A DNA stretch of 64,000 nucleotides from Planctomycetia bacterium (GTDB lineage Bacteria > Planctomycetota > Planctomycetia > Pirellulales > PNKZ01), in the NCBI GenBank assembly GCA_021413845.1, contig JAIOPP010000006.1, positions 1-64,000 on the forward strand, given 5' to 3'. Below the pieces are notes generated by a model. That model had not been told where the DNA came from. It searched no databases and saw only the letters and a list, made by a program, of their open reading frames with translations. Both the position numbers and the translations under genes were made by a program. Shown piece by piece: positions 1-18,236 of this stretch (position 1 is its first letter; the number at the start of each line of letters is the position of its first letter).

Positions 1-170
1 AGCAGCAGGTCGACGTCACGCACCCTTTGCCCGTAGCATTGGGCTGCGGTGATGAGCGAGACTTTTTGTTGGGGATCGTCAAGCGCCCCCCACTCGTCCG
101 CAATCATGCTGGACAGTTGTTGTGCTGCGATGTATTCAGGATCGCCAAGTTCACCAAAGACTTCCCTCAT
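1..170 (-). CDS. Partial ORF, last visible gene of the defence-type operon
   Basis: Only the first 56 codons lie in the window; the gene continues past the left edge. The start is an ATG at 168-170 with a strong AAGGAG ribosome-binding site 4 bases upstream (175-180). It lies 59 bp after the DrmB-like gene in the same direction, so it is probably cotranscribed. The visible N-terminus starts MREVFGELGDPEY and reaches a QRVRDVDLL segment. The RDVD stretch resembles the start of some restriction-nuclease-type folds, but too little is visible for a call. I do not recognise the family. It is the next gene to read when looking for the missing effector (nuclease, PLD or methyltransferase) of this system. 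Confidence 0.7.
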   Translation of the reverse strand, partial: MREVFGELGDPEYIAAQQLSSMIADEWGALDDPQQKVSLITAAQCYGQRVRDVDLL

Positions 171-229
171 GTTGCTCCTTAGTGCTCGGTGAACCTATTG
201 CCGCGATCTATTAGGCGAGTCATCATTGG

Positions 230-2236
230 TCAATCGAGGTTGTCGGCGTCAAAAAACGAAGCTGCTGGACTAAACCCCCGTGGAGGAATCACAAGCACTC
301 GATCCTGATACCCGTTGTTTCGCTCGCAGCTCGTTTCCGGGACGAGCGCACAAGCATGACATGCAGCCCTATTTAGACCCATGTGTCCTTGACCTGACGT
401 GGTGGAGCAAACTGGGTCAGAAGAACACCAAGTTGCCGTTCGCAGCGCCTCCTGCAGAACAGGGACCAGACGGTCGGGATCGCCCATGCGCACGAGTCCG
501 CCTAGGCTTCCGTCTGCGTCCGACGTCGACGTATAGATAAGAAATCCGGCCATCTCGCCTCCTGGGCATGTAGGGGGCATCGCCGAATTTGGCTCTGCGA
601 CATATAGTCGTTCTCGTAGCGAGGCTGAGGAATACCCGCACTCCAGCGTCAACTGCCTGATCAGAAGATGAGCGATTGTGTGAACGAGGACAAATCTTGC
701 AGAGGGGCACGACGAACTGTTCCAACCCTCTTGAACCGCGACGTTGAGAAAGTTCGACCGGAGTGGTTCCATCCGCTCATCGACTGCTGTGCGTAACTCC
801 CACTCGCGAACGCGCTCCAGATTCAACTCGATAAAAATGCCTTCGCCGCGGAGTTCGATCGCCGGCAACCACTGCATCGGCCCTCGAGAGATACTCGCAA
901 ACTTGGCCTTTGCTGAGTCTATATCTGGATTCTCACGGGAAATCCGACGAAAGCCTTGGAGCGCCGTTACTTCCCTGAGGCGATGGACCTTGACTATCCG
1001 ATCGAGATAGCTGCGCCATGTTTCTGGCACTTCGACGGCGTGAGCGTCGAAGTTTCCTCTTGGGTTTGATTCCCCTCGCCGCAGGGCCTCGCATTCCGCG
1101 AATCGCCGTCCGGATGGCGTAATCCTTGGATCCTGGGAAGCGCTTTCGCCGCGCAGTCGGTCTAAGATTGCCATTACGCAAGTGTCGTCTGTGAAACTTT
1201 TCTCTCGATCAAAACCTTGTTCTCGCAGCCGACGCAGCTGCCTTCGAGAAAAGTTCTCCAACTCTGGAGGTGGCAGGTTCTGTTCTGCACGATCTTCGCA
1301 ATCATCCTCCCATCGACTGCGTAGTTCATCGACATATTCATCAAGTGCCTCCGCCAATGAATCGGTATAGGGCGGGATCGAGATTACGGAGGTAGAAACC
1401 GGCAAATGGATGTTGGTGGCTCCACGAAGGAAGACTTTTAACGGTCGCGCACAGCCCTTTGCATCACGGCGGTTCTCCAACCACGGGCGCCACCCTTCGC
1501 ACCTCTTAGTTCCCTTTAATGCTCTGTCGGCAAATACTCCGCGCAAGGGTTCTTTCACTCCACAGCTGCAAGAAACGATTAAGTCGTCAATGGCGAGAGA
1601 GCCGCCAAGCGTCTTGAGATGCATGTAATGGAGTGGTTGTGGTTCAACCTTTGCGGCCTCGTCGCTTACTTTGCGGTGAGCCCACGCATACCAGGGGAAG
1701 TCGTCAATGTGTCCGGGATGATCCGGCTCAGGCCCTTCGGCATCGTGATGACAGACGACGACAAGACGAGTGGGTACACCAACCCCTCGGCATTGCCGAT
1801 TGCCGTTTGTGCGTGTGCATTTTGCCTTTCCCCCGTTAAGCGACTCGAATGCGAATCTTTCGCCAAACTCGGGACTGATCTCAGGTGACTCGTTGCTGAC
1901 TTCTCGGGCCATTCCGATGGCGCTACACTCGGGGCAGTAGAGCCACCGCGGGAAACGGCAGGCTGGAAGGAGAGCTGGAAACGTATTTTCTTGATCGGCC
2001 ACCGGAGGTGCCTGAAACCACCTCTTGTCCACCAGTCTTTCGAGATCTGGTTCGTGAATAACTTGGCACTTGTTCCTTGCTGGCCAGAAGTCCAGTCCAA
2101 GTGGCATCGCTGAATGAAACTGGAAGTCCACCACGGCACCGGTTCCAAAAGTCAAAAGTGCTTGACTCTGACGAATTTCGCCGATTTTTTTGACTTGTGG
2201 ACGCCGACTCATTCCTTCGGATCTTGAGCGAGCCAT
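230..2236 (-). CDS. drmB: DrmB-like DUF1998-domain protein
   Basis: 668 aa. The N-terminus carries the pattern typical of DrmB, GEIRQSQALLTFGTGAVVD at residues 19-37. The C-terminal third is DUF1998-like: HTIAHLLIRQL near residue 517, a GFLIYTS segment, and a final Cys cluster (WCSSDPVC, then CHACALVPETSCE) followed by N..YQDRVL. These cysteines probably bind zinc. A CPEC motif occurs near residue 103. DrmB partners the helicase DrmA in DISARM, which restricts incoming phage DNA. The start lies 2 bp after the drmA-like stop, with an AGGGG site inside the end of drmA, so translation is probably coupled. A second ATG at codon 9 is possible. The family call is firm; the role in this particular set of genes is inferred. 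Confidence 0.85.
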   Translation of the reverse strand: MARSRSEGMSRRPQVKKIGEIRQSQALLTFGTGAVVDFQFHSAMPLGLDFWPARNKCQVIHEPDLERLVDKRWFQAPPVADQENTFPALLPACRFPRWLYCPECSAIGMAREVSNESPEISPEFGERFAFESLNGGKAKCTRTNGNRQCRGVGVPTRLVVVCHHDAEGPEPDHPGHIDDFPWYAWAHRKVSDEAAKVEPQPLHYMHLKTLGGSLAIDDLIVSCSCGVKEPLRGVFADRALKGTKRCEGWRPWLENRRDAKGCARPLKVFLRGATNIHLPVSTSVISIPPYTDSLAEALDEYVDELRSRWEDDCEDRAEQNLPPPELENFSRRQLRRLREQGFDREKSFTDDTCVMAILDRLRGESASQDPRITPSGRRFAECEALRRGESNPRGNFDAHAVEVPETWRSYLDRIVKVHRLREVTALQGFRRISRENPDIDSAKAKFASISRGPMQWLPAIELRGEGIFIELNLERVREWELRTAVDERMEPLRSNFLNVAVQEGWNSSSCPSARFVLVHTIAHLLIRQLTLECGYSSASLRERLYVAEPNSAMPPTCPGGEMAGFLIYTSTSDADGSLGGLVRMGDPDRLVPVLQEALRTATWCSSDPVCSTTSGQGHMGLNRAACHACALVPETSCERNNGYQDRVLVIPPRGFSPAASFFDADNLD

Positions 2237-2238
2237 TT

Positions 2239-5200
2239 TTACCCCTTTGTGGCATCAGTTGTAGAGCCATCCTCGTTATCGTCGGAGGACTTCGGTGGTG
2301 AAGACAGCACCGGAACGATCTTCAGCCGGAAGCCGGTTTCCGGTTCAACATTCCGCATTGAGTTGGGGGCGCCTTCCAATCCGTCTCGTTCTCGACGAGG
2401 AGCGGTCAATTGCCGTAGCAATCGGTTCGGCCCGACATCCCATTGCATGCCAGAACCATATTTCGCATTGGACGAATATAATGCAGCCCATTTTTGCCAA
2501 CGTTGAAGCCTATCTTTGACTTCCTGTTTTGTGACAGCCGCCTCGCGGGGGTCCTGTGCGATTACTCGATCAACGACCGGCTGTACCAGCGACCAAAGAT
2601 GATCGATATTGGCTGTGCCCAATGCTAATGGATCCGCGACAAGTGAACCATCTAAATGACGCAGGATAGCGATCAATACCGCCGATAGCGCTCGATCACG
2701 CGTCGGTGACGACCAGGGAGTTACACTTGTTGCCTCTACCTCCCGGTAAAATGCCTCGTGATACGGCACAAACCTCTCATAATGCGAGCGGTCGCGAGAA
2801 CGTGTCCAATTGAGAAGGGTTATGACAAGGCCTGGAAACTTTCGTCCGACGCGACTCGACGCTTGGATATACTCCGCTGTGGTCTTCGGTTGTCCCTGTA
2901 TCATCATTAGGCCAAGCCGGTCGACGTCTACGCCAACACTGATCATATTGGTTGCCAACAGAACGTCGATTGCGTTGCCACCCGAAGGAGGCCGGTATGG
3001 CTGTTGAAGAAGTTGAAGTATCTTCGGGATATCAGCAGACTTAAGCCGGCTGGTCAATTCTTGCGGCTGAGAAAGGACTCGGACCGGATTGATGTGACCG
3101 AGGCGCTGTCGTATTTGCGCGAAGCTCTTCATGTAATTCGGGACGTCGTCTTGAGCGAGAACGTTTCCCCCGGCAAGTTCCCGGATGCTATTGAAGTAGC
3201 TCACTAGTGTCCAATATGGATCTCTCACATCGTCCGGCAGCTCGCTGACTAATTGTGTAAGAGCTCCACAACATCGCAAAAATAATTGCTTCCCGGACGT
3301 GCCGGGCGCCATCAGGCCTAAGTATGTGCGCCCAGGAAGGTCCGGGGCAACCTGTGCAAAAAAGGACTCTCCCGCAGTCAGGGCTGGTGGCGGAAATTGG
3401 CGGACCTTTCGTTGAAATAAGTTCCACACCTGTTCATCGGCTCGCCTGATAGTCGCCGTCGAGCCGATCACCTTGGGAGTACGTCCTGCATTGTCACGCG
3501 CCAGAACGTCAACCGCAGTCTCGAACAGGCCGACCATGGTACCCAACGGTCCAGAGATCAGGTGGAGCTCGTCCTGGATGATCAAATCCGGAGGTGGGAG
3601 GTGCGCCGCAAACGATAAGCGTCCAAAGAGCGAGCGGGTGTCGGCATTCCAAGTCAAACGAGCGAATTTATCAACCGTGCCAATTACGACGGAGGGTGGT
3701 TCGTCGTAAATCTGCTCGTCCACGATCTGCACTGGCAAACCGGAGTCCCGACGGAATGGACAATTTCCCTTAAGTGGCGCCGGTAGTCGGCCTCCACATT
3801 GAAAAACAAGCCGAAGTCCTCGGGCATTCAACTCATCCGGCGAATTAATGGTTTTGCCCAGGGAATCGGTGATTCGCATGCGAGAAACATCTATCGCGTT
3901 ACCACACCATGGACAATCGCGAATGTGTCTTAAGTCAGATCCCGATTCAGGTTCATGCCCGTCTTTAAGGCGCGTCAGGATGCTGTATGCGCCCTCTACG
4001 ACGTCCTCGCCGGTGCCAATGTCTCTGAAGCGGTTTGGTGAGGAATTGCCACCGATCCACAATCCGATGACGAAGGGGGTTAGTCCAACATTCAGTGTCT
4101 GATTACGAATGTCTCGTTTTTGTTCGCGAATTCCTTCGCAAGCGCAAATAAGTCTCGTGGCTCTTTCGAACTGCTGAGTTGTTAGAAGGCGAAGCGTATA
4201 CCGTGTGATGACACTAACGCCAGCGCCCAGATCCGGATTTGTCGGTTCGCGTAAACGGCGATGAAAAAGTGTAAAAGCCGTTAGCCCCAGATATGCTTCG
4301 GTCTTCCCGCCGCCGGTCGGAAACCAGATCAGGTCCATCAGCTGTCGTTCTGTGGGGCGTTCACTAGTAGTGTCGCCACTAGATGAACTTGGCGCATCGA
4401 CTCTTAGATCGGGAACAGCAATCGAGTTAATCGTCATCAGCAGGAACGCCAGCTGAAACGGTCTCCACTTGGCCGGTGCCAATGTATCCAAGTCTTCGAT
4501 CGGCTTTCCTGCTCGACGTGCGCTCTGTAGCGCAGCCATCTGCTGCTGCTGAAACATTGCTTCATTTGCCAATCGAAAGCATCGAAATGCAATGGGGTTG
4601 GAACGCAGAGTCTGAATGCCAGCTCGCATCCTGGCGAGCACTTCGCGACCAAGTACGTCAATATTCGGAACCGCAGCTCGTTCGCGTACAGAATCACTTT
4701 GATCTGGATCGCGTATTTCCGCGACCGCTTCATCAATTTCTAACCGACGGTCTTTCAGCCACGCAGCATAGGTACAACACAGTCCTTCGAGGGCACCGAG
4801 GATCCAGTCGTCATTACGCGCCCCGGCAAGATATTTCATGATAAATATATTGTCAGGCTCTTCCTCTCTGAAGTCGTCGGGCAGCGCAGATCGAAGCGCA
4901 CCTATTAGCTTAGCAGACTTATCGTCATCCTTGGAGTTGAAGAGATCGTAGCGCAATTCCGGCACCTTGAACTGAGGAACAAACTCAGTCCAGATACGTG
5001 TTGCAGTCCGATGTGTCGGGGAAGTGCGTTGCCAGTCTGCCGCACAGCCGTGACCTGTGGCAAAGTCGCGAGCATGCCGATATAGGAGAAGATGCTGTAC
5101 GTAATCGGGATCTGACGTCCGGCTCGCCCCCGCTGGAGACTCGACAAAAACCTCCTGTTCTTCGCTATCCGTTGGGAAAGCTTCGATTTTGGGCTGGAAA

Positions 5201-5925
5201 ATCGTGTTGCATTCTCGCTCTTGCCAATCGGTTGCGGATACTTCATTTCGGTTCACGAGCGTTGCCGTAATCAGTTTCGGCTTATTTGGCCCATGGTCAT
5301 GTTGCCGAAGATCCAGTTCAACACGCGAAATCGGCCCCGTTTCCCCGTCAAAAGGATACAGCTTTTTGTCTTGGGCTCCGACGCAGATCAATTGCGTTGT
5401 CGAGAAGCCAACTCGCTTCCAAGTCTCACGTTTCTTTGGGTTTGCTTCTTCTGCGGCCTTGGCGGTTCCTTCGGCGGTAACGCCCAGAGGAACTTCCGTC
5501 GTTTTTCCGAGACCTTGCAAGAGTCCACCGAGAAGCGGCTCGCTTGGCTTTTTCGTTTTGCCGTCCGTTAATGTCGTATTCTGTGAAGGCTCATCCGGAG
5601 GTGTGTGAATGTAAATCGCGGCCGATATCCGCAATTGAACCGCGGTCACTTCGTGTCTGACATGAAGCGTTAGCCCCATGGCCGAAGGCCACATGGCATT
5701 AATCAAAGATGGAATGCCCTCCAAAGAGGACTCATTATCGCCCTCTTGCAATTCATCGTTTTGCTCAGTATCCGTAGCAGAATTCATTGGCCGGAGTGAA
5801 CCGCAGATGTAGGTCCTAGAAGGCGGGTCAGCCAATACCTCATCGTCGACGCCAGGTCCTACCGTTGACTTACGAAATTCTTCAACCAGTGAAGTACGCG
5901 CGGTCAGGTATCCTGTCATGTTCAT
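2239..5925 (-). CDS. drmA: DrmA-like SF2 helicase
   Basis: 1228 aa. An N-terminal region of about 500 residues without recognisable motifs precedes a superfamily 2 helicase core. Walker A is PTGGGKTEAYLGL near residue 535. The DExH box appears as IIQDELHLISGPLG near 782, motif III as GSTATIRR, and motif VI as YIQASSRVGRKFPG near 1023, preceded by TNMISVGVDVDRLG. A CPWCG pair near residue 673 and later cysteines suggest a zinc-binding insert between the Walker motifs. This layout and length fit DrmA, the helicase of DISARM. Its start overlaps the end of the UvrD-like gene by 4 bp (ATGA), and drmB follows after 2 bp. The protein probably translocates on or remodels invading DNA together with DrmB; that role is inferred from the family. 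Confidence 0.87.
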   Translation of the reverse strand: MNMTGYLTARTSLVEEFRKSTVGPGVDDEVLADPPSRTYICGSLRPMNSATDTEQNDELQEGDNESSLEGIPSLINAMWPSAMGLTLHVRHEVTAVQLRISAAIYIHTPPDEPSQNTTLTDGKTKKPSEPLLGGLLQGLGKTTEVPLGVTAEGTAKAAEEANPKKRETWKRVGFSTTQLICVGAQDKKLYPFDGETGPISRVELDLRQHDHGPNKPKLITATLVNRNEVSATDWQERECNTIFQPKIEAFPTDSEEQEVFVESPAGASRTSDPDYVQHLLLYRHARDFATGHGCAADWQRTSPTHRTATRIWTEFVPQFKVPELRYDLFNSKDDDKSAKLIGALRSALPDDFREEEPDNIFIMKYLAGARNDDWILGALEGLCCTYAAWLKDRRLEIDEAVAEIRDPDQSDSVRERAAVPNIDVLGREVLARMRAGIQTLRSNPIAFRCFRLANEAMFQQQQMAALQSARRAGKPIEDLDTLAPAKWRPFQLAFLLMTINSIAVPDLRVDAPSSSSGDTTSERPTERQLMDLIWFPTGGGKTEAYLGLTAFTLFHRRLREPTNPDLGAGVSVITRYTLRLLTTQQFERATRLICACEGIREQKRDIRNQTLNVGLTPFVIGLWIGGNSSPNRFRDIGTGEDVVEGAYSILTRLKDGHEPESGSDLRHIRDCPWCGNAIDVSRMRITDSLGKTINSPDELNARGLRLVFQCGGRLPAPLKGNCPFRRDSGLPVQIVDEQIYDEPPSVVIGTVDKFARLTWNADTRSLFGRLSFAAHLPPPDLIIQDELHLISGPLGTMVGLFETAVDVLARDNAGRTPKVIGSTATIRRADEQVWNLFQRKVRQFPPPALTAGESFFAQVAPDLPGRTYLGLMAPGTSGKQLFLRCCGALTQLVSELPDDVRDPYWTLVSYFNSIRELAGGNVLAQDDVPNYMKSFAQIRQRLGHINPVRVLSQPQELTSRLKSADIPKILQLLQQPYRPPSGGNAIDVLLATNMISVGVDVDRLGLMMIQGQPKTTAEYIQASSRVGRKFPGLVITLLNWTRSRDRSHYERFVPYHEAFYREVEATSVTPWSSPTRDRALSAVLIAILRHLDGSLVADPLALGTANIDHLWSLVQPVVDRVIAQDPREAAVTKQEVKDRLQRWQKWAALYSSNAKYGSGMQWDVGPNRLLRQLTAPRRERDGLEGAPNSMRNVEPETGFRLKIVPVLSSPPKSSDDNEDGSTTDATKG

Positions 5926-8066
5926 CGATTGCCTATCCTTTCAATGCACCCTGAAAGTTCCGGTAAGAGCACAAAGGGGAATGCCGGGTTTCCCGTAACA
6001 AATGTTCTCACATCTATAATCCGGACGGAGTACTGGCAATTAAGGGCGTCTTCGACTCCAAGATGTTTGCGCACGAAGTCGGCGAACTCGACAGTAAATC
6101 CAGGTCCAAACTTCCACGTTGATGCTAATCCCGCAACCTCGAGGCCGAATCTGCCATCACCGGCATAGTGAATGCGAAGGCGTCCAAGCCGGCGGAATTC
6201 ACGCCATAGCGCCTCCTGCATTGCGACGAATTCTTGCTGGGCCACAACTTCGGCGGCGTCATTCAATCCGCCAATATCGAAGAACTCGAATTTCCAATTG
6301 AAGACATTCGGGAGCCAGTAGCTACCCGAGCATCGATAAACTTCTCGACGTGCTCGGGTAGCGGCAACATAAGCCAAGCGACATTCCTCGGGGTCGGAAC
6401 TTCGTTGATCGAGAATGCGATCAAGGTTTGCGATTACTACGACATCAAACTCGCGGCCTTTAGCTTGATGGATCGTTGAGATCCATACTTCTCCTGCCTG
6501 AGGTTGCTCCCGCAAGTCAGTGGGTACAACCGGGTTTCGATCAATACCCTCTATGATGTCGTTTAAAAGAAACCCATTTGCATTAATGCTGAATGCAGTA
6601 GTTAGCCAGTCTAGGTTTTTCGATGCCTCGTTAACAGTACGCGATACTCGCGTCGCGTATGCCTCGAGGAACCCGGCGCGTGTATACCTTTCGGTGGTGT
6701 TCAAACTCCCAAATACGCGCCCAATCCAGCCAGGATACCCTCTGCCATCAGATTCTGCCACAACCTTAAGCGGCCTATTGAACCGCTCCTTCAATATCGA
6801 GCACCCTACCTCAAGCTGTCGTACTTCCCGATTGGTTCGAGCCAAAATGGCGACACGCGTCTTGCGCGAATCTTCGTTAGCCAATTCTAGAGGATCTTCG
6901 AGGACTGGCTGTTCCTCAAGTAATGACCGGAGCATATTTCGATCCGGATGCTCTCCGGGAAGTTTGTTTCCAGCTTGGTCATCCATCGCAGTCTGCAGGT
7001 TGACCATTAGACGTTTGCAGGAGTGACTGAATCGGAACTGTTCTGTAAAAGCGAGCAGTTCAAGATCATTGTAGATGACTTTAAGCTCACGTATCAGCCA
7101 GAAGGCATCCATAGACCGCTCTTCGAGCGGCATGCCTTCTAGCGCGAATCCATAGATCGCCTGACGAAGATCGCCAAGGATCAGAACTCCATGCTTTGTA
7201 CCGCTCAATGCGCTGAGCAAGTTGCGAATTAAGCGCGCCCGTACCCCGACGACATCTTGGACTTCGTCTATGACGACCAGCCGCACTCGCTGTCGAATGA
7301 GCCGCACTGCTTCAGCTTGCACTTCAGCACCCTTGCCACCTTCCAATATCTGTGCCAGCAAACGGACATTGGCGTCATACCCTGTTTGCGCGCCGTTGGA
7401 AAGTAAAGAGCCTAAAAGTACACCTGTGAGTGAGTCGAGAGTAGAGATACGAGGATGCTGGTAAATAGCGCCCTCTCGCCGCACCATTTCTAACGCCAGC
7501 CGCTGGCTCAATTCTGCAGCTGCTGCTCGCGAGAAGCTCACGACCAAGACCGTGCTAAGATCGCCACGCAGATGATTGGGACCGGCAAGTTGTACGAGCC
7601 GTTGAATTACGGCATGCGTCTTGCCTGTGCCCGGCGGCGCAATTACTAGTTGATGCTCGTTCACTTGCGCCAATATGACGCGGTTTTGTGGGGTGACGAG
7701 CGACGCACATGCTCGGGAGGGAGCGTCTGACAGAGAAGTCGGCTCGTCACATACGGGTTGCAAGGTTACGGGTGTGTCATCAAGAGTGCGAGGAACCGGC
7801 GGAAGAAGGAATCGATGAGCGTCACAGATACCTAGGTAAGGATCCTTAATCGCGATCCGAAAATCCTGAAAGTGCTTGCGCTCAGCCCGCTGCGAATCCG
7901 TTAAGTCCTTCATCACTTCGCCACGCCGCAACATCCAGAACAGACGGATATACTGGTACAGCTCCTCCCAATTGAGGGCTTGCTGGAAACGAGTTACATC
8001 GGCCTGTATGCGATCATAGCTGACTACATTAAGTCGAACCTGGATATTGGTCTGAAAGTCATCCAT
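5922..8066 (-). CDS. UvrD/Rep-like superfamily 1 helicase
   Basis: 714 aa. About 130 N-terminal residues precede a UvrD-type ATPase. Walker A is APPGTGKTHAVIQRL near residues 141-155. Walker B is VVIDEVQD near 264, motif III LGDLRQAIYGF, motif IV FTEQFRFS, motif V TIHQAKGREFDVVVIANL near 530-548 and motif VI AYVAATRARREVY. All catalytic helicase motifs are present, so it should be an active 3'-5' DNA translocase of the UvrD/Rep/PcrA group; I see no fused nuclease motif. It overlaps the Hsp70-like gene upstream by 8 bp and the drmA-like gene downstream by 4 bp, so it belongs to the same transcription unit. Pairing an SF1 helicase with the SF2 DrmA is not part of the classical DISARM gene set. 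Confidence 0.85.
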   Translation of the reverse strand: MDDFQTNIQVRLNVVSYDRIQADVTRFQQALNWEELYQYIRLFWMLRRGEVMKDLTDSQRAERKHFQDFRIAIKDPYLGICDAHRFLLPPVPRTLDDTPVTLQPVCDEPTSLSDAPSRACASLVTPQNRVILAQVNEHQLVIAPPGTGKTHAVIQRLVQLAGPNHLRGDLSTVLVVSFSRAAAAELSQRLALEMVRREGAIYQHPRISTLDSLTGVLLGSLLSNGAQTGYDANVRLLAQILEGGKGAEVQAEAVRLIRQRVRLVVIDEVQDVVGVRARLIRNLLSALSGTKHGVLILGDLRQAIYGFALEGMPLEERSMDAFWLIRELKVIYNDLELLAFTEQFRFSHSCKRLMVNLQTAMDDQAGNKLPGEHPDRNMLRSLLEEQPVLEDPLELANEDSRKTRVAILARTNREVRQLEVGCSILKERFNRPLKVVAESDGRGYPGWIGRVFGSLNTTERYTRAGFLEAYATRVSRTVNEASKNLDWLTTAFSINANGFLLNDIIEGIDRNPVVPTDLREQPQAGEVWISTIHQAKGREFDVVVIANLDRILDQRSSDPEECRLAYVAATRARREVYRCSGSYWLPNVFNWKFEFFDIGGLNDAAEVVAQQEFVAMQEALWREFRRLGRLRIHYAGDGRFGLEVAGLASTWKFGPGFTVEFADFVRKHLGVEDALNCQYSVRIIDVRTFVTGNPAFPFVLLPELSGCIERIGNR

Positions 8067-9576
8067 GAGTCGACCTGCTTGTGCCCGGTACTAACGCAAG
8101 TGGAATGCGACTAAGTTCAACTTGTTCCCGGGTCTCTTGATAATTGTCCAAGCCGTCAAGTTGTATCCGACCGATTGCCATTGCAGTGACATATAAATAT
8201 TCATCTAGGCCAACTCGTAATCTCACATCGTAGGGTATGGCGCTTCGTAGATCGGGATCACGGCGGTGTACTACTGGCACCGATAATATTTCCAGCGGCT
8301 CATATTGCCCTCTGTCGGGTACGTAGCCGACTTCTAGAACGGCTTGCGGCGCAGCCAAGTCGGTTACCCGATACTTGTACTCTCGATAGGTTAGCTCTCC
8401 GCTTCCTCGCGGAAACGGTTGCCCTTTGCGAAGCACATAGTGGAGTCGATCATCGAATTGCCGTATAGCGATATCTGCTGATAGGGCTAGTTCAAAACCA
8501 CGCTCGGCGAGAATTGCACATCCTCTGACAGTGGCCCGCTGCCTATTCTCTACAACCAACTCTCGCGCTTGCGGCCAAATCATTTGCAGCTTCTTGCGTA
8601 CCATTGCTGACTGCGGCGGTCCGCCCACAAGCAGATAGTGTGCAACATCTTCAATCGCTAAATTGGCGCTACGCGTAGTTTCTATCGCGAGCCGGCGGAC
8701 TTTGTCGACAAACCAATCAAGGCACTCTTCAATCATCGGCCCCGTCAACTTGAAGTATGGATAGAGTTCCGGCGGGGTATCCTGTTGCCAAAAGTCAGTA
8801 TTGTTGGCCAGCGAGCCCGTAGACAGATAGGCTATTTTCCCGCGCTCCAGACGACTCAGTATCGAGCTTTGTATGCTCCGATTCGCTGAGTCAAACCAAG
8901 ACTGAGCATCTGGGCATCGGGAAAGCGCCTTTGAAAGGATCCGCAAGTCGAGGTCCCGGCCGCCAAGACCTGAGCTCCGGGCATTTACGTTTAGGTCCTC
9001 GATGCGGTTTGGTGAGCGGGCGCAACGCACGATTGTGATATCTACAGTTCCGCCGCCCCAATCAATCACACCGACTGGTCCCTCTGGAAAATCGCCGTGT
9101 TGAATCGCGGAATACACCGCCGCAGTTGGCTCATAGACAAACTCAACTTGTGATATACCAGCGCCTCTCGCAGCTCTGAGTAGGGCTTGCCGATGGGCGG
9201 GAGGGAACTCCACGGGAGTGGCAATCACGGCTCCGAGCATGTCCGGTGCTGGACGGCCGCCGAAAAGCTGCTCAATCAATGATTTCAAGAAGCGAGTGAC
9301 AAGTTCTTCGGTATGAAACGTTTTCGGGCCTATGCGAAGTTCCGGAGCTCGGCCTAATTGCGGCTTGAGTCCGGTGATGATTAGGCTATTGTCACCATCC
9401 GTTAGAGACGCCTTTAGCGCATCGAAGCCATATCGATAGGCATCTTGGAAATAAGAGATCATTGACGGTATTGGAAGATCGCCGGTCGGTCCTCCGAGTG
9501 TTTCAGCAAAGCGCTGCTGTTCGATCATTGCGGAGGCTGAATTCGTTGTTCCGAAGTCGATCCCAATCCAGAGCAT
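8059..9576 (-). CDS. Hsp70-like (DnaK-fold) ATPase without a lid domain
   Basis: 505 aa from the ATG at 9576, chosen because an AGGAG site lies just upstream and the protein then begins directly with the first strand (MLWIGIDFGTTNSASA); in-frame ATGs at 9612, 9600 and 9594 are alternatives. The actin/Hsp70 nucleotide-binding motifs are intact: phosphate 1 at residues 7-15, a VEFVYEPTAAVYSA connect segment near 145-155, phosphate 2 as DWGGGTVDITIV near 170, and the adenosine loop YLLVGGPPQSAMV near 315. After about residue 385 a short beta-rich tail containing KGQPFPRGS resembles the start of a substrate-binding beta-domain, but no helical lid follows. The length is well below DnaK (about 640). 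It lies between the coiled-coil gene and the SF1 helicase. It probably uses ATP to assemble or switch the complex; client and partner are unknown. Confidence 0.82.
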   Translation of the reverse strand: MLWIGIDFGTTNSASAMIEQQRFAETLGGPTGDLPIPSMISYFQDAYRYGFDALKASLTDGDNSLIITGLKPQLGRAPELRIGPKTFHTEELVTRFLKSLIEQLFGGRPAPDMLGAVIATPVEFPPAHRQALLRAARGAGISQVEFVYEPTAAVYSAIQHGDFPEGPVGVIDWGGGTVDITIVRCARSPNRIEDLNVNARSSGLGGRDLDLRILSKALSRCPDAQSWFDSANRSIQSSILSRLERGKIAYLSTGSLANNTDFWQQDTPPELYPYFKLTGPMIEECLDWFVDKVRRLAIETTRSANLAIEDVAHYLLVGGPPQSAMVRKKLQMIWPQARELVVENRQRATVRGCAILAERGFELALSADIAIRQFDDRLHYVLRKGQPFPRGSGELTYREYKYRVTDLAAPQAVLEVGYVPDRGQYEPLEILSVPVVHRRDPDLRSAIPYDVRLRVGLDEYLYVTAMAIGRIQLDGLDNYQETREQVELSRIPLALVPGTSRSTHG

Positions 9577-9650
9577 GTTCCCTGCTCCTCTCATTTCCAT
9601 AAGCGTTGGCACTTAGAATGTCCATTGACTCGTTCGCTAAAGGACGCCGG

Positions 9651-11102
9651 TCAAGAGGCTTTAATTGGGTGTCCTAGGCCGCCAATCTGTTGCCACAGGA
9701 TTTCGTCTAACTGATTCCAGATTCCTGCGAGATGACGAGGTTCTCGCTCCCCTCGCACAACTTTTTCAAGCATGCTTGCCATGAGCTCCCATGTTTGACG
9801 AAGGTCCATTCCCAAGCCATCCAACGCATGTTGACGAATTTGGGCGAGTTGCCGATCCGAGCGATGTGTTAGACGTTCGTAGTCTTCCTTTGTCGTTCTC
9901 AACTCCTTCTCTGCTTGCGCCATCGTAGTCTGAAGAACGGAGTAAGAATGTTCCAGTTGCGCCCGTCTCGTTGCTTCTGCATCGCGTTGCTCCCGAGCGC
10001 TGTTCAAATCACTCCTTAGCTCCGATATGCGTGATTCCTGAAGTTGCAGCGAGATTTGTAGCTGACCGATTTCTTCCTGAAGTGATTGCCTTTCGTGCCG
10101 CAGAGCTTTTAGCTGGTCACTTGTGGTCTGCTGATTTCGAGGAAGTGAACGGAGGAAAGTGAACAACGCGTTTATGCTGGCCTTCACGGGCTCTGGGAGG
10201 TCTGATAACGCTTCCTCCCACGCGCCTACTGAGTTCTGCTTTACGGAGTCAGCGAATGCAGGTTCGGCATCGAGACCGGTGAGTTGTCGAGAGGGATCGA
10301 AGTTCGCGATGACGTTTGTCGAGATTGGCCGCAGCAGTTCGCCGAACTGCCGGATAAGCTCTGTGCCAATTGGGGCTTGACGGATTTTAGAATTGTACTG
10401 ACTCGAAAAAGGAGAGAGTTCGCTGAGGCACATCAGCAGCGGAACGATGCCACGTATGCCGCTGTGATCAATCTGGCAAATCCTATCCAGATACGGTTCC
10501 GCAATATCGCGTCCGCGTTCGTGCTTAAATGAAGTAAAAGGCGTCAATAAATCCAGTGACATTTGTGCCCATGCGTCGCACCAACAGGGGTCGCTACGGC
10601 GGTCAATTGCCCGATCCCAAACTCGCACTCCTAGAAAGGCAAAGTCATCGTTGAGTTTCTTTCTCAAATCACGTAGTAGTGGCTTCGAGAACCGAAAAAC
10701 CTCTGCCGAATGTCGTTTGCCAGGGGATGCTGCTTCTAAGTCGTTAGAAACCAAGCGACAAACGATAAGATCGTGAAGCAGATAGCGATGGGCGTTCGGT
10801 GCTTTACTGAGAAGTAATCCCCGAATAGCCGCTTCCGTCGAGACGGAAGTGTCGAGCATGCCGAGCGCTTGCGAAAAGAGGCCGAAAGCATTGTCATGCA
10901 GCGCGGCAGCGCTACCAATGCGGGCGACGAGTTGCTGCAAGGGATCCTTGCGGAAGCGGTCTCGTACTAATAGATCCAAACGGCGGATGGAATCTTTCAG
11001 TGGATCCCCGCCAGTTACGATTCGCTCCTCGAGCTCATTTAAAAGTAGTTCAATGTCACCGGGGGCACTTGTCGTAGTTGGGAATGTTTCGGAATCTGTC
11101 AC
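9651..11102 (-). CDS. Unknown protein with C-terminal coiled coil
   Basis: 483 aa. I do not recognise the N-terminal 310 residues, which look mostly helical and soluble. Residues about 315-425 form a long charged coiled coil (LKALRHERQSLQEEIGQLQ and onward), followed by a short helical end with DLRQTWELMASMLEKVV. There is no signal peptide or membrane segment. Its start overlaps the 1241-aa gene upstream by 4 bp, and the Hsp70-like gene follows directly. A coiled coil plus a short helical bundle next to an Hsp70 ATPase recalls the architecture of GrpE-type exchange factors, but I see no sequence match to GrpE, so that is only an idea. It could equally be a scaffold or phage sensor for the complex. 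Confidence 0.75.
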   Translation of the reverse strand: MTDSETFPTTTSAPGDIELLLNELEERIVTGGDPLKDSIRRLDLLVRDRFRKDPLQQLVARIGSAAALHDNAFGLFSQALGMLDTSVSTEAAIRGLLLSKAPNAHRYLLHDLIVCRLVSNDLEAASPGKRHSAEVFRFSKPLLRDLRKKLNDDFAFLGVRVWDRAIDRRSDPCWCDAWAQMSLDLLTPFTSFKHERGRDIAEPYLDRICQIDHSGIRGIVPLLMCLSELSPFSSQYNSKIRQAPIGTELIRQFGELLRPISTNVIANFDPSRQLTGLDAEPAFADSVKQNSVGAWEEALSDLPEPVKASINALFTFLRSLPRNQQTTSDQLKALRHERQSLQEEIGQLQISLQLQESRISELRSDLNSAREQRDAEATRRAQLEHSYSVLQTTMAQAEKELRTTKEDYERLTHRSDRQLAQIRQHALDGLGMDLRQTWELMASMLEKVVRGEREPRHLAGIWNQLDEILWQQIGGLGHPIKAS

Positions 11103-14100
11103 GTTGTTTCTCTTGCAAGCGGTCTGTTTGTGCGGTGCTCATACCCCTGCAAAAAGCGCAGGAAATCAGCCCGGCACGGGAAGTATGGTTGGACAAAGTG
11201 TTCGTTAGAGCGGTGCGTTACCGAAGCCGCAGAGCCGGAGTCCGTCTTAAGGCGATTCGCGGCGTCCGCAAGTGCCTTCAGCCATGTTCGTTCCTCTGAT
11301 GTACGAGATTCATCAGAGGCCGCCTGAGATAGCGTGGCTTTCCAAGCTGCAAGGCGGTTTCTGAGAGGCGGCTCTGTGTAAAACTGCAGCTGAATTGCCA
11401 CCGTTCCGACTTCAGCAAGTATGCCAGCAGGAACATTCTCAGGTTGAATCAATGAAACACGCGCCGCGGTTCGCGGTGGATCGTCGAGGTAGCCCAGTAA
11501 TGTATCGATCAGTTGATAAAGGATTGACTTTTGATCTCGTATCGCGTCGCGAGAGCGATCGATGAGAGTGTACAGCGAGTATTCGTGCCAAGGTTCGTAC
11601 AAATTACGAAGAAATCTGTAAAGCAGTGTCGCGTTTGCCAACGCAGGCTCACCCGAAGGCCAAGATTCCAAAAAGTCAGTTAATGGTGTATCTCCTTCAG
11701 GTATAGCGGGAGAAAACGCTGTGATATCTAGACTTCGAATCGCGAAGGTTTCACCCTTACGTCTCAGTGCCAGTCGATACTCACCCGGCTCTCTCACACT
11801 TACAGAACAGCAATGTATTTGGCGATCAAGGCCGCTGCTGTTCATTTGGACGGGAAAGCGCTCCTCCGACTGTTCTGGTTCACCCGCGGCTAGTGGAATG
11901 GCAATAATCTCAAGAGACTCGCCTGCAACAAACCCGCATATTACTTCGACCTCCAATTGGCAAGTAGTCCCACCGGCAAGAGAAGGAATTCCCTGGTGCA
12001 GCATCTTGAATCCTAAAACACACGGGCGCAGGTCAAGCGAGATGCCGCCGACTTTTCTTCCGTCGCTCTCCAAGCAAATTGACGAGTAGGGACTTCCCAG
12101 CCATTTTTTCTGCGCAGGCGTGTCCTCAAACAGTTCCCTAGGTAGCAGCTTAAGAAGATTGAGGTCGCCAACTACCGGCCCTTGCAAGATTGTCGCGACG
12201 AGAAAATCTCGAGGAGTGATCGACTCCCCAGTATTCACGGCGATCTGGACTTTTTGATCCACATTCGGAATGACAACTCGCGCGCAAGGCGTAAAAGTAT
12301 CAATTAGGAAGGTCCGCAATGCCTCAAGATCCCATTCGTCTTTCCAAAACCACGCTCCCAGTAACGTTAAGTCGGTTCGTTTCAGCAAATCCAAATTCGA
12401 AAACGGGAAGCGGTTCGATAGGTAAACCGCCTCGGCAACGACTTGGCCCTCGGAAGGGATTTCGTTGGATGTAGCTTCCCGTAGTTCGAAGGGATTGTGA
12501 AGGCCGGAAGTGTCCTCGAGACGGACGCCACCCGGTATTTCCGGACTGCGCGGAAGCGGAGTTTCGAGATTGTACGGTAGCACTACAAACCGCTCGCTCT
12601 GTCCGGAAACCCCCAGGGTGCCGCCAGCACCTTCTTCGAGCTCCAGCCAACCATCAAGCGCGATGCGCCGAACGTTGAACCCTGGTTCGGTTAACTCAAT
12701 TGAGAGAAATGACTCTAGGGGCAATCTCAGCTGCACTCCGCTTGCCGAGGGTATCACGGAAAAGTCGTTCCGAAGGCGTTTGCACGGGACGCGAATAGAA
12801 GGCACCGACTCAGCGTCCATTCCAGCAGTCAACTCAACATGGTCAAGTAGTTCTAGAACTTGTTCGGCCTCCAACCGAACATCATCGTGTTGAAAGTCAA
12901 CACTGAGGCAAAGCAGCGGGGGAGCCCCGAAGAACACCTGTATTCCGGGGTCCGAAAACGCGAAGCTAGAGCTAGAGATTTCGGAAATGTTTGCGTCGGA
13001 CGGCATCAAGCGCAGGCGCGCAAGTGGGCGACGGCGTGGATCAAAGCTCCAACGCTCGCCCGCGGTGGCCACGGTGGTTTCGCAACCGTTTTGCGGGATT
13101 ACTTCGTAAACCCGGGATTTGTCTAGGGAAGGATGCGACAAAACTATTTCCTGGCATCGTGCTCCAGCGATTTCAGGAGTTTCTGTCGTTAGCAATATTA
13201 TACTGCCTTCTTGCGGCAATAGGTGTTGACCAGGGAGGAGTCGCCTTCCTGCTGCAAATAGCGAAGGACATGGCCACCGGAGACTGATTTCTGCCAACGT
13301 GGTGGAAGTGCCGGTAGTACCTTGGCGAACGCTGAAGAGAGTTTTACCTCCAGCCGTTGCAGGTGCCCGACAACGCACGTCATGCCAGCCGCGAGAACCT
13401 GCATTCGACCAGAGTCGATCAGCACGTCCGTCGACTGACTCGCAGCTGAGAGTAACGCGGTCGTTCTCCCCATCACCTAGCCAAAATCGACTTACATAAA
13501 AAACCGGATGGAGTTCGCGGTCTAGCGAAGGCCAAGCAAATAGGCGCAGCCTCGAGGGCGCAGCCCAACTCTGTCCCGAATGTGCGGTCGGTTCTTGTCC
13601 GAAAAGGTGTCCGCTGTGAAGCAATTCATCGTCTGAAATCGGACCTACCCATACCCAGGCATCGGGTGTAGACAAGGATCCGTTCGTCCCAATTACCGGT
13701 CGCGACTGAGTTCGCAAACGGCTAGGATGTGGCACACAAAAATTGCTACGACTAGCACGCCAACGCATATCGTTATCGATGTGCCAAGCATCTCCAGCTC
13801 TTTTTAGGACACCAACAATCTCATCCGCGGTCCGGCCGAGATCGTCCAGAAGCATTACCCTTCGAACGACGTCGCCATCCAGCTGCATTGTCCCGTTGCC
13901 AATTGGTGGCGGTCCACTTGAGCGAAGTGACCACGAACCACCGTTGAAACGAAGAACTGCTGCCGGATGTCGCCGAAACAGTATCTGGAGCTGATCGAGG
14001 GAGTACGCTTCAATCCCAATCGCTATATGTTTTCTCAGAATCGCTACGATCGCAGCTGGCAGACCGGACAAACCGGTGCCGAGGATATTGCGCGCACGAT

Positions 14101-14824
14101 CTAACAAAGAGTCGACGGTCCAGCCGTCGTCAGGCGGGATTTGGCCGCGAATTAACTTTGCAAGGACAGCCAGTCGAATCCCTGCCTCAACAAGACATTC
14201 CCTCAGGGCATTGATAGAGCCAAGTTCTTCTTGACTAACAGTTTTACTAGTCCGAAATGCTTGGAGAAGCGAATCAAAACGTCGCTGAGCGAGATCTCGC
14301 GGATCGGTAGTTCGGGCCCAATCACTGAACATCCCGTCTAAGAACTGTTCTGTGAACTCACTCGAAATCCAAACAAGTGCACATTCTCCAATAACCGCTC
14401 GCACAAACCAGAAGTGGTGTCCCTCCTGCGTGTAGCAACTCGATCTGCTATATCGATCTAACCAGCCGCGCAAAGCGGCACGGATTGGTAGCTCTCCGGC
14501 AAATCGTTGACGAAACGCGAATTGCCTGTTGAGCCTGTCCGGACCCATTCCGGCGAGCAACGGAATGACAGTGTCTTCCCAAAGCCGATAGCTGTGGCCG
14601 GCGGCCTGAGTTTGAATTAATAATAGGAACGCCGGTACGTGGCGCTCGTCGAAGCCACCGGCGAGAATTGACGCTTCTAACTCGTTACGCAGCGCTTGGG
14701 CATTATGAATAGGCAGTTCTGCTAAACCGAGCCGCCAAAATGCAACAGTACTAACGCCGGACCGGCTGCAATAGTCGCGAAAGGCCGCTTGGAAGGCCCG
14801 AGCGATTGCGTCGATTTCCGGCAT
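11099..14824 (-). CDS. Large unrecognised protein, first gene of the defence-type operon
   Basis: 1241 aa with no family I recognise. There is no Walker A, nuclease, methyltransferase, TIR, signal peptide or membrane segment that I can see. The first 300 residues are mostly helical. A long middle part (about 300-1050) is rich in predicted beta strands and Trp/Gly/Pro, as in several beta-sandwich domains in tandem. The last 150 residues are helical again. The start at 14824 has a GGGGGGA ribosome-binding site and a promoter-like sequence just upstream. The stop overlaps the next gene by 4 bp. As first gene of a tightly packed operon with DrmA/DrmB-like proteins, it is likely a system-specific component such as a recognition or scaffold subunit. 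That is inference from context only. Confidence 0.75.
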   Translation of the reverse strand: MPEIDAIARAFQAAFRDYCSRSGVSTVAFWRLGLAELPIHNAQALRNELEASILAGGFDERHVPAFLLLIQTQAAGHSYRLWEDTVIPLLAGMGPDRLNRQFAFRQRFAGELPIRAALRGWLDRYSRSSCYTQEGHHFWFVRAVIGECALVWISSEFTEQFLDGMFSDWARTTDPRDLAQRRFDSLLQAFRTSKTVSQEELGSINALRECLVEAGIRLAVLAKLIRGQIPPDDGWTVDSLLDRARNILGTGLSGLPAAIVAILRKHIAIGIEAYSLDQLQILFRRHPAAVLRFNGGSWSLRSSGPPPIGNGTMQLDGDVVRRVMLLDDLGRTADEIVGVLKRAGDAWHIDNDMRWRASRSNFCVPHPSRLRTQSRPVIGTNGSLSTPDAWVWVGPISDDELLHSGHLFGQEPTAHSGQSWAAPSRLRLFAWPSLDRELHPVFYVSRFWLGDGENDRVTLSCESVDGRADRLWSNAGSRGWHDVRCRAPATAGGKTLFSVRQGTTGTSTTLAEISLRWPCPSLFAAGRRLLPGQHLLPQEGSIILLTTETPEIAGARCQEIVLSHPSLDKSRVYEVIPQNGCETTVATAGERWSFDPRRRPLARLRLMPSDANISEISSSSFAFSDPGIQVFFGAPPLLCLSVDFQHDDVRLEAEQVLELLDHVELTAGMDAESVPSIRVPCKRLRNDFSVIPSASGVQLRLPLESFLSIELTEPGFNVRRIALDGWLELEEGAGGTLGVSGQSERFVVLPYNLETPLPRSPEIPGGVRLEDTSGLHNPFELREATSNEIPSEGQVVAEAVYLSNRFPFSNLDLLKRTDLTLLGAWFWKDEWDLEALRTFLIDTFTPCARVVIPNVDQKVQIAVNTGESITPRDFLVATILQGPVVGDLNLLKLLPRELFEDTPAQKKWLGSPYSSICLESDGRKVGGISLDLRPCVLGFKMLHQGIPSLAGGTTCQLEVEVICGFVAGESLEIIAIPLAAGEPEQSEERFPVQMNSSGLDRQIHCCSVSVREPGEYRLALRRKGETFAIRSLDITAFSPAIPEGDTPLTDFLESWPSGEPALANATLLYRFLRNLYEPWHEYSLYTLIDRSRDAIRDQKSILYQLIDTLLGYLDDPPRTAARVSLIQPENVPAGILAEVGTVAIQLQFYTEPPLRNRLAAWKATLSQAASDESRTSEERTWLKALADAANRLKTDSGSAASVTHRSNEHFVQPYFPCRADFLRFLQGYEHRTNRPLARETT

Positions 14825-14856
14825 CGTAGCTAGTCCCCCCTAATTGAGTGCCTCTG

Positions 14857-14884
14857 ATCATAACTACTTTGAAACTGGAAGCAA
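14857..14884 (-). promoter_or_regulatory. Probable sigma-70-type promoter of the defence operon
   Basis: On the minus strand a TTGCTT -35-like element (14879-14884) is followed after 16 bp by a near-perfect TATGAT -10 element (14857-14862). Transcription would start about 25 bp before the ATG of the 1241-aa gene, leaving room for the G-rich ribosome-binding site at 14831-14840. No other good promoter was seen inside the operon, where genes overlap or nearly touch. This is a match by eye only; planctomycete promoters are poorly defined. Confidence 0.45.
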
Positions 14885-15125
14885 CTTTTTGATAGTCTGC
14901 TTGCCAGCGAGCAACCGCCTCCCGCGCATCGAAAAAATCGCCCGAAGACGACGAACTCAACTTAGACGTTGGCCACGTCATTAATTTCGGAAAAGGTGTC
15001 AAAGCTTGCCACCGCTGCCGACTTCTGCGGGATCCCGGTCAAGTAGGCGCCGACAGCAAGGAGGTGGCTCGGGGAGCAGGAGTCCACGCTGCGTCAAATG
15101 GAAAGACGCATAGCGCGAACGCTGC

Positions 15126-15383
15126 TTACTCTCCCCTGCGCGGCGAATGACCCATTGGTAATGAGAGCTTCGCGGTCTGAACGAAGGACGGCAATAAAGA
15201 AGTCCGGAAGTGGATCTCATCGAGGGCTTCGACGACGGCGTCGTGGAGTCGGTCGAAGTCGGCGGGGACGAAGTTGGCGAGCTTCGAGTACTTGGCATGG
15301 CTCCAAAGCGCTTCGACCGGGTTGAGGTTGGGTGCGTGACCCGGAAGCCATTCGACATCGAGTAAGGACCGCAAGTTTATCAT
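15126..15383 (-). pseudogene. Decayed IS630-family transposase, C-terminal end only
   Basis: The minus-strand reading frame encodes WLPGHAPNLNPVEALWSHAK and a helical tail, which is the classical end of IS630/Tc1-type DDE transposases; the Glu of NPVEALW is the third catalytic acid. The N-terminal domain and the two catalytic Asp motifs are missing, and the frame continues only a few codons beyond the first Met before similarity is lost, so about three quarters of the gene is gone. It lies between the promoter of the defence operon and the recombinase module and marks past insertion in this interval. I did not identify terminal inverted repeats. Confidence 0.72.
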
Positions 15384-15677
15384 CGTGAGGCCGGACTTGT
15401 TTGACGGGGGCAGGTCTTTTCGGCTTGTTCTTTATATCGTAGTTTAGGGTTATAGTGTTTGCTATGAAGTATTGCCCTGACCGCAGTTCAGGACCACGGC
15501 CTTAATTCCCTGACAAATCGCGTCATATCAACTGTGAGGCATAGCTAGCATCCGCGGGGTTGCAAGGTTATCGAAGAAAAAAGCCGGCAATACTGGTATT
15601 GCTTGCAACTTAAAAGCGTTTTAGCATCCTTGGCCGCAAGAAATGCGTGGCACACCTACTTCGACGCGGGGCCAAGG
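15384..15677. other. Short AT-rich intergenic stretch
   Basis: About 290 bp between the transposase remnant and the small ORF upstream of the recombinase. The part from 15420 to 15475 is AT-rich and could hold a promoter for the recombinase pair (for example TATAGT near 15451), but I could not fix a -35/-10 pair with confidence. An upstream TTG at 15603 could extend the next gene by 25 codons. I see no other feature. Confidence 0.4.
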
Positions 15678-16199
15678 ATGGCAACGAATACCGAACAATA
15701 CGACGACACGCTTGGAGTCGACCTCGACGTCCGGAGCTCGGCATTTCGATTCGCCGAGCGGAGCACGTTACTCTGCGGCGAATCGCTTCTTGCGATTGCC
15801 GCAGCTGCACAGACTCGCGGAATGGTCTGTGATGTTCAGGGACTTCCGGCCGGATTTGTTTTCGAGCTTGGTGCTGTGGCACAACTGATTGTCTGGGAAC
15901 TCCAGGGATTACGTCCCTTCTTGCCGCCCGATTTCCCGACGTCCGAGGCCGCAGGCGAGGAATTGCTCGAGCGCGTTGAGCGCGAACCCCTCCAATTTCT
16001 CGATCTTAAGTCGGCGATTCTCTCGCGCAAACTCGCGCAGTTCTGGCTCGACGGATTCAGCCGTTTTGCATCGAGCTCGCTGGAGGCCGACATTCATCTC
16101 GGCGACCTCGACGAAGACACGCTCGTCGAAGCGGTCGCGCAACTTACATGGAAACTTCGCCATCGCGGCGGTGTCTCAAGCTCGCAGGAAATTCAATGA
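15678..16199 (+). CDS. Small protein coupled to the serine recombinase
   Basis: 173 aa from the ATG at 15678; an in-frame TTG at 15603 would add 25 residues but is a poorer start. The sequence is acidic and predicted soluble and helical, with no motif I recognise and no obvious DNA-binding helix-turn-helix. Its stop codon overlaps the recombinase ATG by 4 bp (ATGA at 16196-16199), so the two proteins are probably made together. Possible roles are a directionality factor, a recombinase partner or a regulator. These rest on the coupling only. Confidence 0.6.
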   Translation: MATNTEQYDDTLGVDLDVRSSAFRFAERSTLLCGESLLAIAAAAQTRGMVCDVQGLPAGFVFELGAVAQLIVWELQGLRPFLPPDFPTSEAAGEELLERVEREPLQFLDLKSAILSRKLAQFWLDGFSRFASSSLEADIHLGDLDEDTLVEAVAQLTWKLRHRGGVSSSQEIQ

Positions 16200-18124: not shown

Positions 18125-18161
18125 GATCCGATCGAGAGGAACAGTCGTTAGGAAATGTCAG

Positions 18162-18236
18162 TCGGGGCGACAGGATTTGAACCTGCGACCTCTTGGACCC
18201 CATCCAAGCGCGCTAGCCAGTCTGCGCCACGCCCCG
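18162..18236 (-). tRNA. tRNA-Pro (anticodon GGG)
   Basis: The minus strand folds into a cloverleaf. The acceptor stem is CGGGGCG/CGCCCCG, the anticodon stem CTTGG/CCAAG encloses the loop ATGGGGT (anticodon GGG), and the T arm is GCAGG TTCGAAT CCTGT. The discriminator base is A and CCA is not encoded. The 3' end faces the recombinase gene, the usual side for island insertion. ORFs that cross it are artefacts. Confidence 0.95.

What the first reader, a model, noticed from the sequence alone, without database searches (positions are those of the whole stretch)
8059..9576. Lidless Hsp70-like ATPase inside a defence-type operon
All nucleotide-binding motifs of the DnaK fold are intact, but the protein ends after a short beta segment and lacks the helical lid. 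It overlaps an SF1 helicase gene by 8 bp, so it is an integral part of the operon and not a housekeeping chaperone. An Hsp70-type ATPase as a switch or assembly factor in an anti-phage complex would be unusual.
Basis: partly seen in the sequence, partly recalled or inferred. Interest (0 to 1): 0.72.

Follow-up and report, generated by a model that had tools for sequence, protein, structure and literature searches.

The report
Lidless Hsp70 ATPase in DISARM-like operon
A stripped-down relative of the Hsp70 chaperone, with its ATP-splitting site intact but its lid and hinge missing, sits with a coiled-coil partner in a rare anti-virus gene cluster of the DISARM type, and the same arrangement recurs in distantly related bacteria, so it is probably a working part of the machine rather than a stray chaperone gene.

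Summary
Window 8059-9576 encodes a 505-residue Hsp70-superfamily protein with every catalytic nucleotide-site residue intact, a complete beta substrate-binding domain (not just a 'short segment') and no helical lid. It overlaps an SF1 helicase gene by 8 bp. The downstream pair is DrmA-DrmB, so the operon is DISARM-like but lacks DrmE, and no classical class 1 or 2 layout was seen. The contig ends just past drmB.

The order coiled-coil > Hsp70 > SF1 > DrmA > DrmB recurs in five other loci (Bacillota, Gastranaerophilales, one IMG/VR contig), four with a NERD-helicase added. The SF1 proteins of those five form a supported clade. In a related, mainly actinobacterial clade the slot before SF1 holds an Hsp90-like (sacsin-type) ATPase fused to an SF2 helicase (7 of 8). 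All six Hsp70s have lost the interdomain linker and the DnaK Arg167 J-protein contact, but keep the ATPase residues. I infer a nucleotide-driven switch or scaffold in the defence complex, not a J-protein-driven foldase. Hsp70-like subunits in defence are not new (CoCoNuT CnuD); I found none described with DISARM-type DrmAB. No function was tested.

The parts
8059..9576 (-). Lidless Hsp70-like ATPase (505 aa): nucleotide-binding domain about 8497-9576, beta substrate-binding-like domain about 8089-8496, no helical lid, no VLLLD linker
9651..11102 (-). Coiled-coil protein (483 aa), directly upstream; positional equivalent of the coiled-coil gene before Hsp70 in the related loci (sequence homology to those not shown)
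5922..8066 (-). SF1 (UvrD-like) helicase, 714 aa; not DrmE
   Evidence: DrmE positive control
2239..5925 (-). DrmA, YprA-family SF2 helicase of DISARM type
   Evidence: E=6.6e-224; DrmAS 928 bits against a cut-off of 950
230..2236 (-). DrmB, DUF1998/MZB zinc-binding partner of DrmA
   Evidence: 462.8 bits against a cut-off of 240
11099..14824 (-). Large first protein of the operon (1241 aa), no family match; same position as an unrelated-looking 1016/640-aa protein in L070/L113

Best explanation
The gene encodes an accessory ATPase subunit of a rare DISARM-like defence system (large protein - coiled-coil - Hsp70-like - SF1 helicase - DrmA - DrmB). Shown: fold family, intact ATPase residues, absent lid and linker, tight operon, recurrence of the order. 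Inferred: with its coiled-coil neighbour it forms a module that binds the SF1-DrmAB machine. ATP binding and hydrolysis in the Hsp70 clamp then toggle or stage that complex (assembly, loading on DNA or release), probably without J-protein control and without lid-based trapping of unfolded chains.
For: Order CC-Hsp70-SF1-DrmA-DrmB in L055 and in L070, L076, L113, L136, four of the 80 best DrmA loci of genome contigs. SF1 proteins of these five plus L084, whose contig starts inside SF1, form a clade at 98/98. Hsp70 bit scores: window against system members 75-111, against own DnaKs 64-70. A tree separates the window, the five and five further coiled-coil-linked Hsp70s from DnaK and phage Hsp70s at 100/99. 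All 13 checked nucleotide-site residues identical. Linker and Arg167 equivalent lost in all six, and no J-domain hit in the operon. In the related clade an Hsp90-like ATPase fills the same slot in 7 of 8, which suggests a general need for a chaperone-type ATPase there.
Against: No function or interaction was tested. The window's Hsp70 and SF1 sit on very long branches (3.6-3.9 and 3.1), so its kinship with the five is by order and weak similarity; support for the six Hsp70s as one group is only 72/61. The window's coiled-coil and large proteins show no significant sequence homology to their positional equivalents. Most SF1-DrmAB loci work, presumably, without Hsp70. The contig ends at the drmB side, so missing genes cannot be excluded.
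Confidence: 0.5

Rival explanations
1. Dedicated assembly or folding chaperone: it only helps the large, complex operon proteins fold or assemble and is not part of the acting complex.
For: A complete beta substrate-binding-like domain is predicted; very large partner proteins; adjacency to a coiled-coil protein, as with dedicated chaperone pairs.
Against: Lid, hydrophobic linker and the J-protein contact, the parts a foldase cycle uses, are missing in all six; most SF1-DrmAB loci have no such gene.
Confidence: 0.2
2. Sensor: the Hsp70-like clamp binds phage-made protein or RNA and releases or activates the helicase-nuclease core.
For: CnuD Hsp70-like subunits of CoCoNuTs were proposed to bind RNA (PMC11090510); fusion to TPR repeats in L076; exchange of the slot with an Hsp90-like ATPase.
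Against: CnuD was argued to be a near-dead ATPase; this family keeps all ATPase residues. DrmAB itself is already proposed to recognise DNA ends (PMC9142583).
Confidence: 0.2
3. Ordinary chaperone gene that happens to lie there, or a fortuitous neighbour carried by the island.
For: The system is rare, the region has island features (GC 52-56% against about 60%), and the window proteins are very divergent.
Against: Same neighbours in the same order in five unrelated loci; 8-bp overlap; separate DnaKs elsewhere in the genome.
Confidence: 0.05

Closest known systems
DISARM (DrmA-DrmB core), class 1 and class 2
   Same: DrmA helicase and separate DUF1998 DrmB side by side; relatives carry 5-methylcytosine methyltransferases matching DrmMII (L055, L136).
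   Different: SF1 helicase instead of DrmE (positive control L132 found, SF1s not); coiled-coil plus Hsp70 module; NERD-helicase in place of PLD DrmC in relatives. No Hsp70 mentioned in the YprA-family survey PMC12458937.
CoCoNuT CnuD / CnuCD Hsp70-like subunits (PMC11090510)
   Same: Hsp70-like NBD/SBD in a defence operon with coiled coils.
   Different: There fused or linked to McrB/McrC; motifs said to be degenerate. Here linked to SF1-DrmAB with intact ATPase residues. Homology with CnuD not tested.
Lidless Hsp70s: Ssz1 of the ribosome-associated complex, lid-truncated DnaK
   Same: NBD plus short SBDbeta without lid; Ssz1 and truncated DnaK/BiP structures are among the fold matches.
   Different: Ssz1 belongs to a ribosome-bound J-protein complex (own knowledge); no J protein here.
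Coiled-coil plus DWGGGT-Hsp70 gene pairs outside DISARM (L137, L174, L175, L177, L188)
   Same: Same phosphate-2 variant DWGGGT, same loss of linker, a coiled-coil gene directly upstream.
   Different: No SF1-DrmAB in the same operon; longer C-termini (except L177) with a Cys-rich end.

Membership tests
DISARM | DrmA helicase | tested here: met
   PADLOC E=6.6e-224; NCBIfam DrmAS 928.4 bits, just under the 950 cut-off
DISARM | DrmB (DUF1998) | tested here: met
   NF038324 462.8 bits, cut-off 240
DISARM | DNA methyltransferase DrmMI or DrmMII in the operon | tested here: inconclusive
   None among the six genes; the contig ends 229 bp beyond drmB. C5 methylases exist on other contigs C27 and C70. 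Present in relatives L055 and L136
DISARM class 2 | DrmE upstream of DrmA | tested here: not met
   SF1 proteins give no DrmE match, while L132 and L110 do
DISARM | DrmC PLD nuclease | tested here: inconclusive
   Not seen before the contig end; four of five relatives have a NERD-helicase-type gene there
Hsp70 superfamily | Actin-like nucleotide-binding domain with phosphate-1, connect-1, phosphate-2 and adenosine motifs | tested here: met
Canonical Hsp70 chaperone (DnaK type) | Helical lid (SBDalpha) | tested here: not met
   no helix after residue 360; 122-146 residues left after NBD against 262 in own DnaK
Canonical Hsp70 chaperone (DnaK type) | Hydrophobic interdomain linker and J-protein contact Arg167 | tested here: not met
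   about 10-residue deletion, residue 167 equivalent is E/S/G/M/N
CoCoNuT (CnuD) | McrB-like GTPase and McrC partner in the operon | tested here: not met
   no McrB or McrC match in the six genes
CoCoNuT (CnuD) | Sequence homology with CnuD | not tested
   CnuD sequences were not fetched
GrpE (for the coiled-coil partner) | GrpE family match | tested here: inconclusive
   Pfam GrpE E=0.031, below cut-off, window only; hhalign probability 17.6% for window, 4% for relatives; ranks 15 and 30 of 1867 with E>1

The most novel reading that the evidence does not exclude
SF1-DrmA-DrmB defence systems have a 'chaperone slot' just upstream of the SF1 helicase, filled in one clade by a coiled-coil plus lidless Hsp70 and in another by an Hsp90-like (sacsin-type) ATPase fused to a helicase. 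The slot protein is the ATP-driven sensor or switch that arms the helicase core on infection.
Probability: 0.25. Interest if true: 0.78.

Novelty: new variant of a known kind. Interest (0 to 1): 0.6.

Why it matters
DISARM's activation and its extra subunits are poorly understood. A recurring chaperone-type ATPase next to DrmAB, with an intact active site but without lid and linker, would be a direct handle on how such a system is armed. It would also show that Hsp70 can be turned from a folding machine into an immune switch. The exchange with an Hsp90-like ATPase makes the idea testable by comparison.

Tried and rejected
(1) SF1 as DrmE: rejected, with a positive control. (2) Coiled-coil protein as GrpE-like exchange factor: suggestive helix layout (142-residue helix plus hairpin) but no significant sequence support; structure comparison was uninformative, GrpE was not among the listed rows. 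(3) Homology of the 1241-aa protein with the 1016/640-aa proteins of L070/L113: none found, though L070 and L113 match each other (E=5e-40). (4) Finding more copies in the window's own phylum, class and order: only the window's and a decayed SF1-DrmA-DrmB remnant in L047; in IMG/VR by SF1 and Hsp70: only L055's contig again; in plasmids and phages: no full system seen. (5) PADLOC candidate PDC-M61B: only weak local matches. (6) Literature for an Hsp70 in DISARM: none in the open library, and subscription papers are not covered.

Full report
What is there. The gene lies on the minus strand, ATG 9576 to stop 8059 (505 aa; an in-frame GTG at 9612 is a less likely start because an AGGAG stands 8 nt before the ATG). 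It is the third of six co-directional genes: a 1241-aa protein without any family (14824-11099), a 483-aa coiled-coil protein (11102-9651), the Hsp70-like protein, a 714-aa SF1/UvrD-like helicase (8066-5922), DrmA (5925-2239) and DrmB (2236-230). Neighbours overlap by 4, 8 and 4 bp, with gaps of 74 and 2 bp, as expected of one operon. The window starts at the first base of contig C6, so whatever follows drmB is unknown.

The protein. It is a true member of the Hsp70 superfamily (Pfam E=1e-21; DnaK structures E=1.7e-21). All residues that define the ATP site are present and identical in its five system relatives; the four aligned are only 21-23% identical to it overall. The C-terminal ~135 residues are predicted all-beta (AlphaFold2, mean pLDDT 68.7, five-sequence alignment), and the best fold match is DnaK with the lid deleted. 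The whole SBDbeta seems to be there and the lid is absent. Two further losses had not been noticed. The hydrophobic interdomain linker (VLLLD in DnaK) falls in a deletion of about ten residues, and the residue equivalent to DnaK Arg167, the J-protein contact (own knowledge), is E, S, G, M, N or M in the six. Catalytic residues are kept while the parts needed for the J-protein-driven, lid-trapping folding cycle are gone.

Recurrence. A DrmA-based scan of IMG/VR gave one locus (L055) with coiled-coil, Hsp70, SF1, DrmA and DrmB in the same order. A scan of 84,980 species genomes gave four more among the 80 best DrmA loci: L070 (Bacillota MAG), L076 (Gastranaerophilales, Hsp70 fused to N-terminal TPR repeats), L113 (Anaerosalibacter bizertensis) and L136 (Eubacterium coprostanoligenes). 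L055, L070, L076 and L136 have a NERD-helicase-type gene after DrmB (domain matches for L055, L070 and L136; L076 judged from its N-terminal sequence); L113 has a reverse transcriptase there. L055 and L136 have cytosine methyltransferases matching DrmMII, L136 also a Vsr-type nuclease. The arrangement is rare: none besides the query in 392 genomes of the phylum, and 1 of 391, 1 of 220, 1 of 146 and 1 of 246 genomes in other searches, each time the starting genome.

Relationship to other DrmAB systems. SF1-DrmA-DrmB without Hsp70 is more common. In a maximum-likelihood tree of 31 SF1 proteins the five Hsp70-linked ones form a clade (98/98) together with L084, whose contig begins inside the SF1 gene and so cannot be scored. 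A related clade of eight, mostly Actinomycetota, carries in the same slot a 1545-1835-aa protein in seven of eight: an N-terminal Hsp90-like (sacsin-type) ATPase region followed by an SF2 helicase. The Pfam SACS scores are at or below the cut-off (L088 32.7 against 32.8 bits; L068 and L083 lower), so this reading rests on the N-box and GRFGxG motifs as well. The window's SF1 is on a long branch and cannot be placed.

A wider gene pair. Eleven Hsp70s (window, five system members, L137, L174, L175, L177, L188) fall on one side of a branch with 100/99 support against DnaK and phage Hsp70s. They share the phosphate-2 form DWGGGT(L/V)D and the loss of the linker, and each has a gene with coiled-coil character directly upstream. 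The Hsp70 and coiled-coil genes thus look like a mobile two-gene module used in several contexts, one of which is DISARM-like. I asked whether the coiled-coil protein is a GrpE-like exchange factor; the helix layout fits, but sequence tests do not establish it.

How it may work. Shown: the anatomy, the intact ATP site, the lost linker and lid, and the conserved order. Inferred: the Hsp70-like clamp and the coiled-coil partner form a nucleotide-driven switch or scaffold on the SF1-DrmAB machine. DrmAB is reported to load on DNA with 5' overhangs and to be activated when a loop (TL) is dislodged (PMC9142583). A chaperone-type ATPase could govern assembly, loading or release. Rivals are a dedicated assembly chaperone and a sensor of phage protein or RNA, as proposed for CoCoNuT CnuD (PMC11090510).

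Known or new. The core is DISARM by DrmA and DrmB, but it is neither class 1 nor class 2 as defined: no DrmE (tested with a positive control), and no methyltransferase or DrmC within the held sequence. The Hsp70-in-defence idea has a precedent in CoCoNuTs. The combination with SF1-DrmAB, the intact ATPase with deleted linker, and the exchange with an Hsp90-like ATPase were not found in the YprA-family survey text (PMC12458937) or in the open literature searched. I rate it a new variant of a known kind. The main weaknesses are the divergence of the window's own copy, the moderate structure model and the absence of any functional data.

Noticed in passing
L068, L071, L082, L083, L085, L088, L100 (slot upstream of SF1): Seven of eight members of a related SF1 clade have a 1545-1835-aa protein, Hsp90-like (sacsin-type) N-terminus fused to an SF2 helicase, directly before SF1-DrmA-DrmB.
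   Followed up: partly
L137:17814-20902, L174:900-3862, L175:7967-10920, L177:7982-10458, L188:6868-9770: Two-gene pairs of a coiled-coil protein and a DWGGGT-type Hsp70 outside DISARM; in L175 the upstream genes look like McrB/McrC (by eye), and L175 and L177 share a further zinc-finger-like gene.
   Followed up: partly
L176, L179, L180, L182 around 9000-10500: IMG/VR contigs encode lidless Hsp70s of about 490-500 aa among structural or lysis-region genes.
   Followed up: no
L189:4218-10220: Nostoc plasmid cluster TPR - DnaJ domain - GrpE - Hsp70 - TPR.
   Followed up: no
window 16148-18236 and GC profile 1-18000: Large serine recombinase (16148-18124) next to tRNA-Pro (18161-18236); GC 52-56% over the operon against about 60% beyond, so the operon is probably on an acquired element.
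   Followed up: partly
G000:C95:6813-9332 (L004, L005): Two adjacent, very divergent Hsp70-like genes in the window's own genome.
   Followed up: no
L113:15005-17116: Reverse transcriptase gene after DrmB in place of the NERD-helicase; PADLOC's RT-associated NERD-helicase model matches the NERD-helicases of L070 and L136 over their length.
   Followed up: no
L047:2312-9348: Decayed SF1-DrmA-DrmB copy with a stop and a broken SF1 in a genome of the same class.
   Followed up: partly
window 29835-31433 and 23287-23973: RtcR-like CARF-AAA-HTH regulator (PADLOC E=4.6e-106) and a weak CARF-like protein.
   Followed up: no
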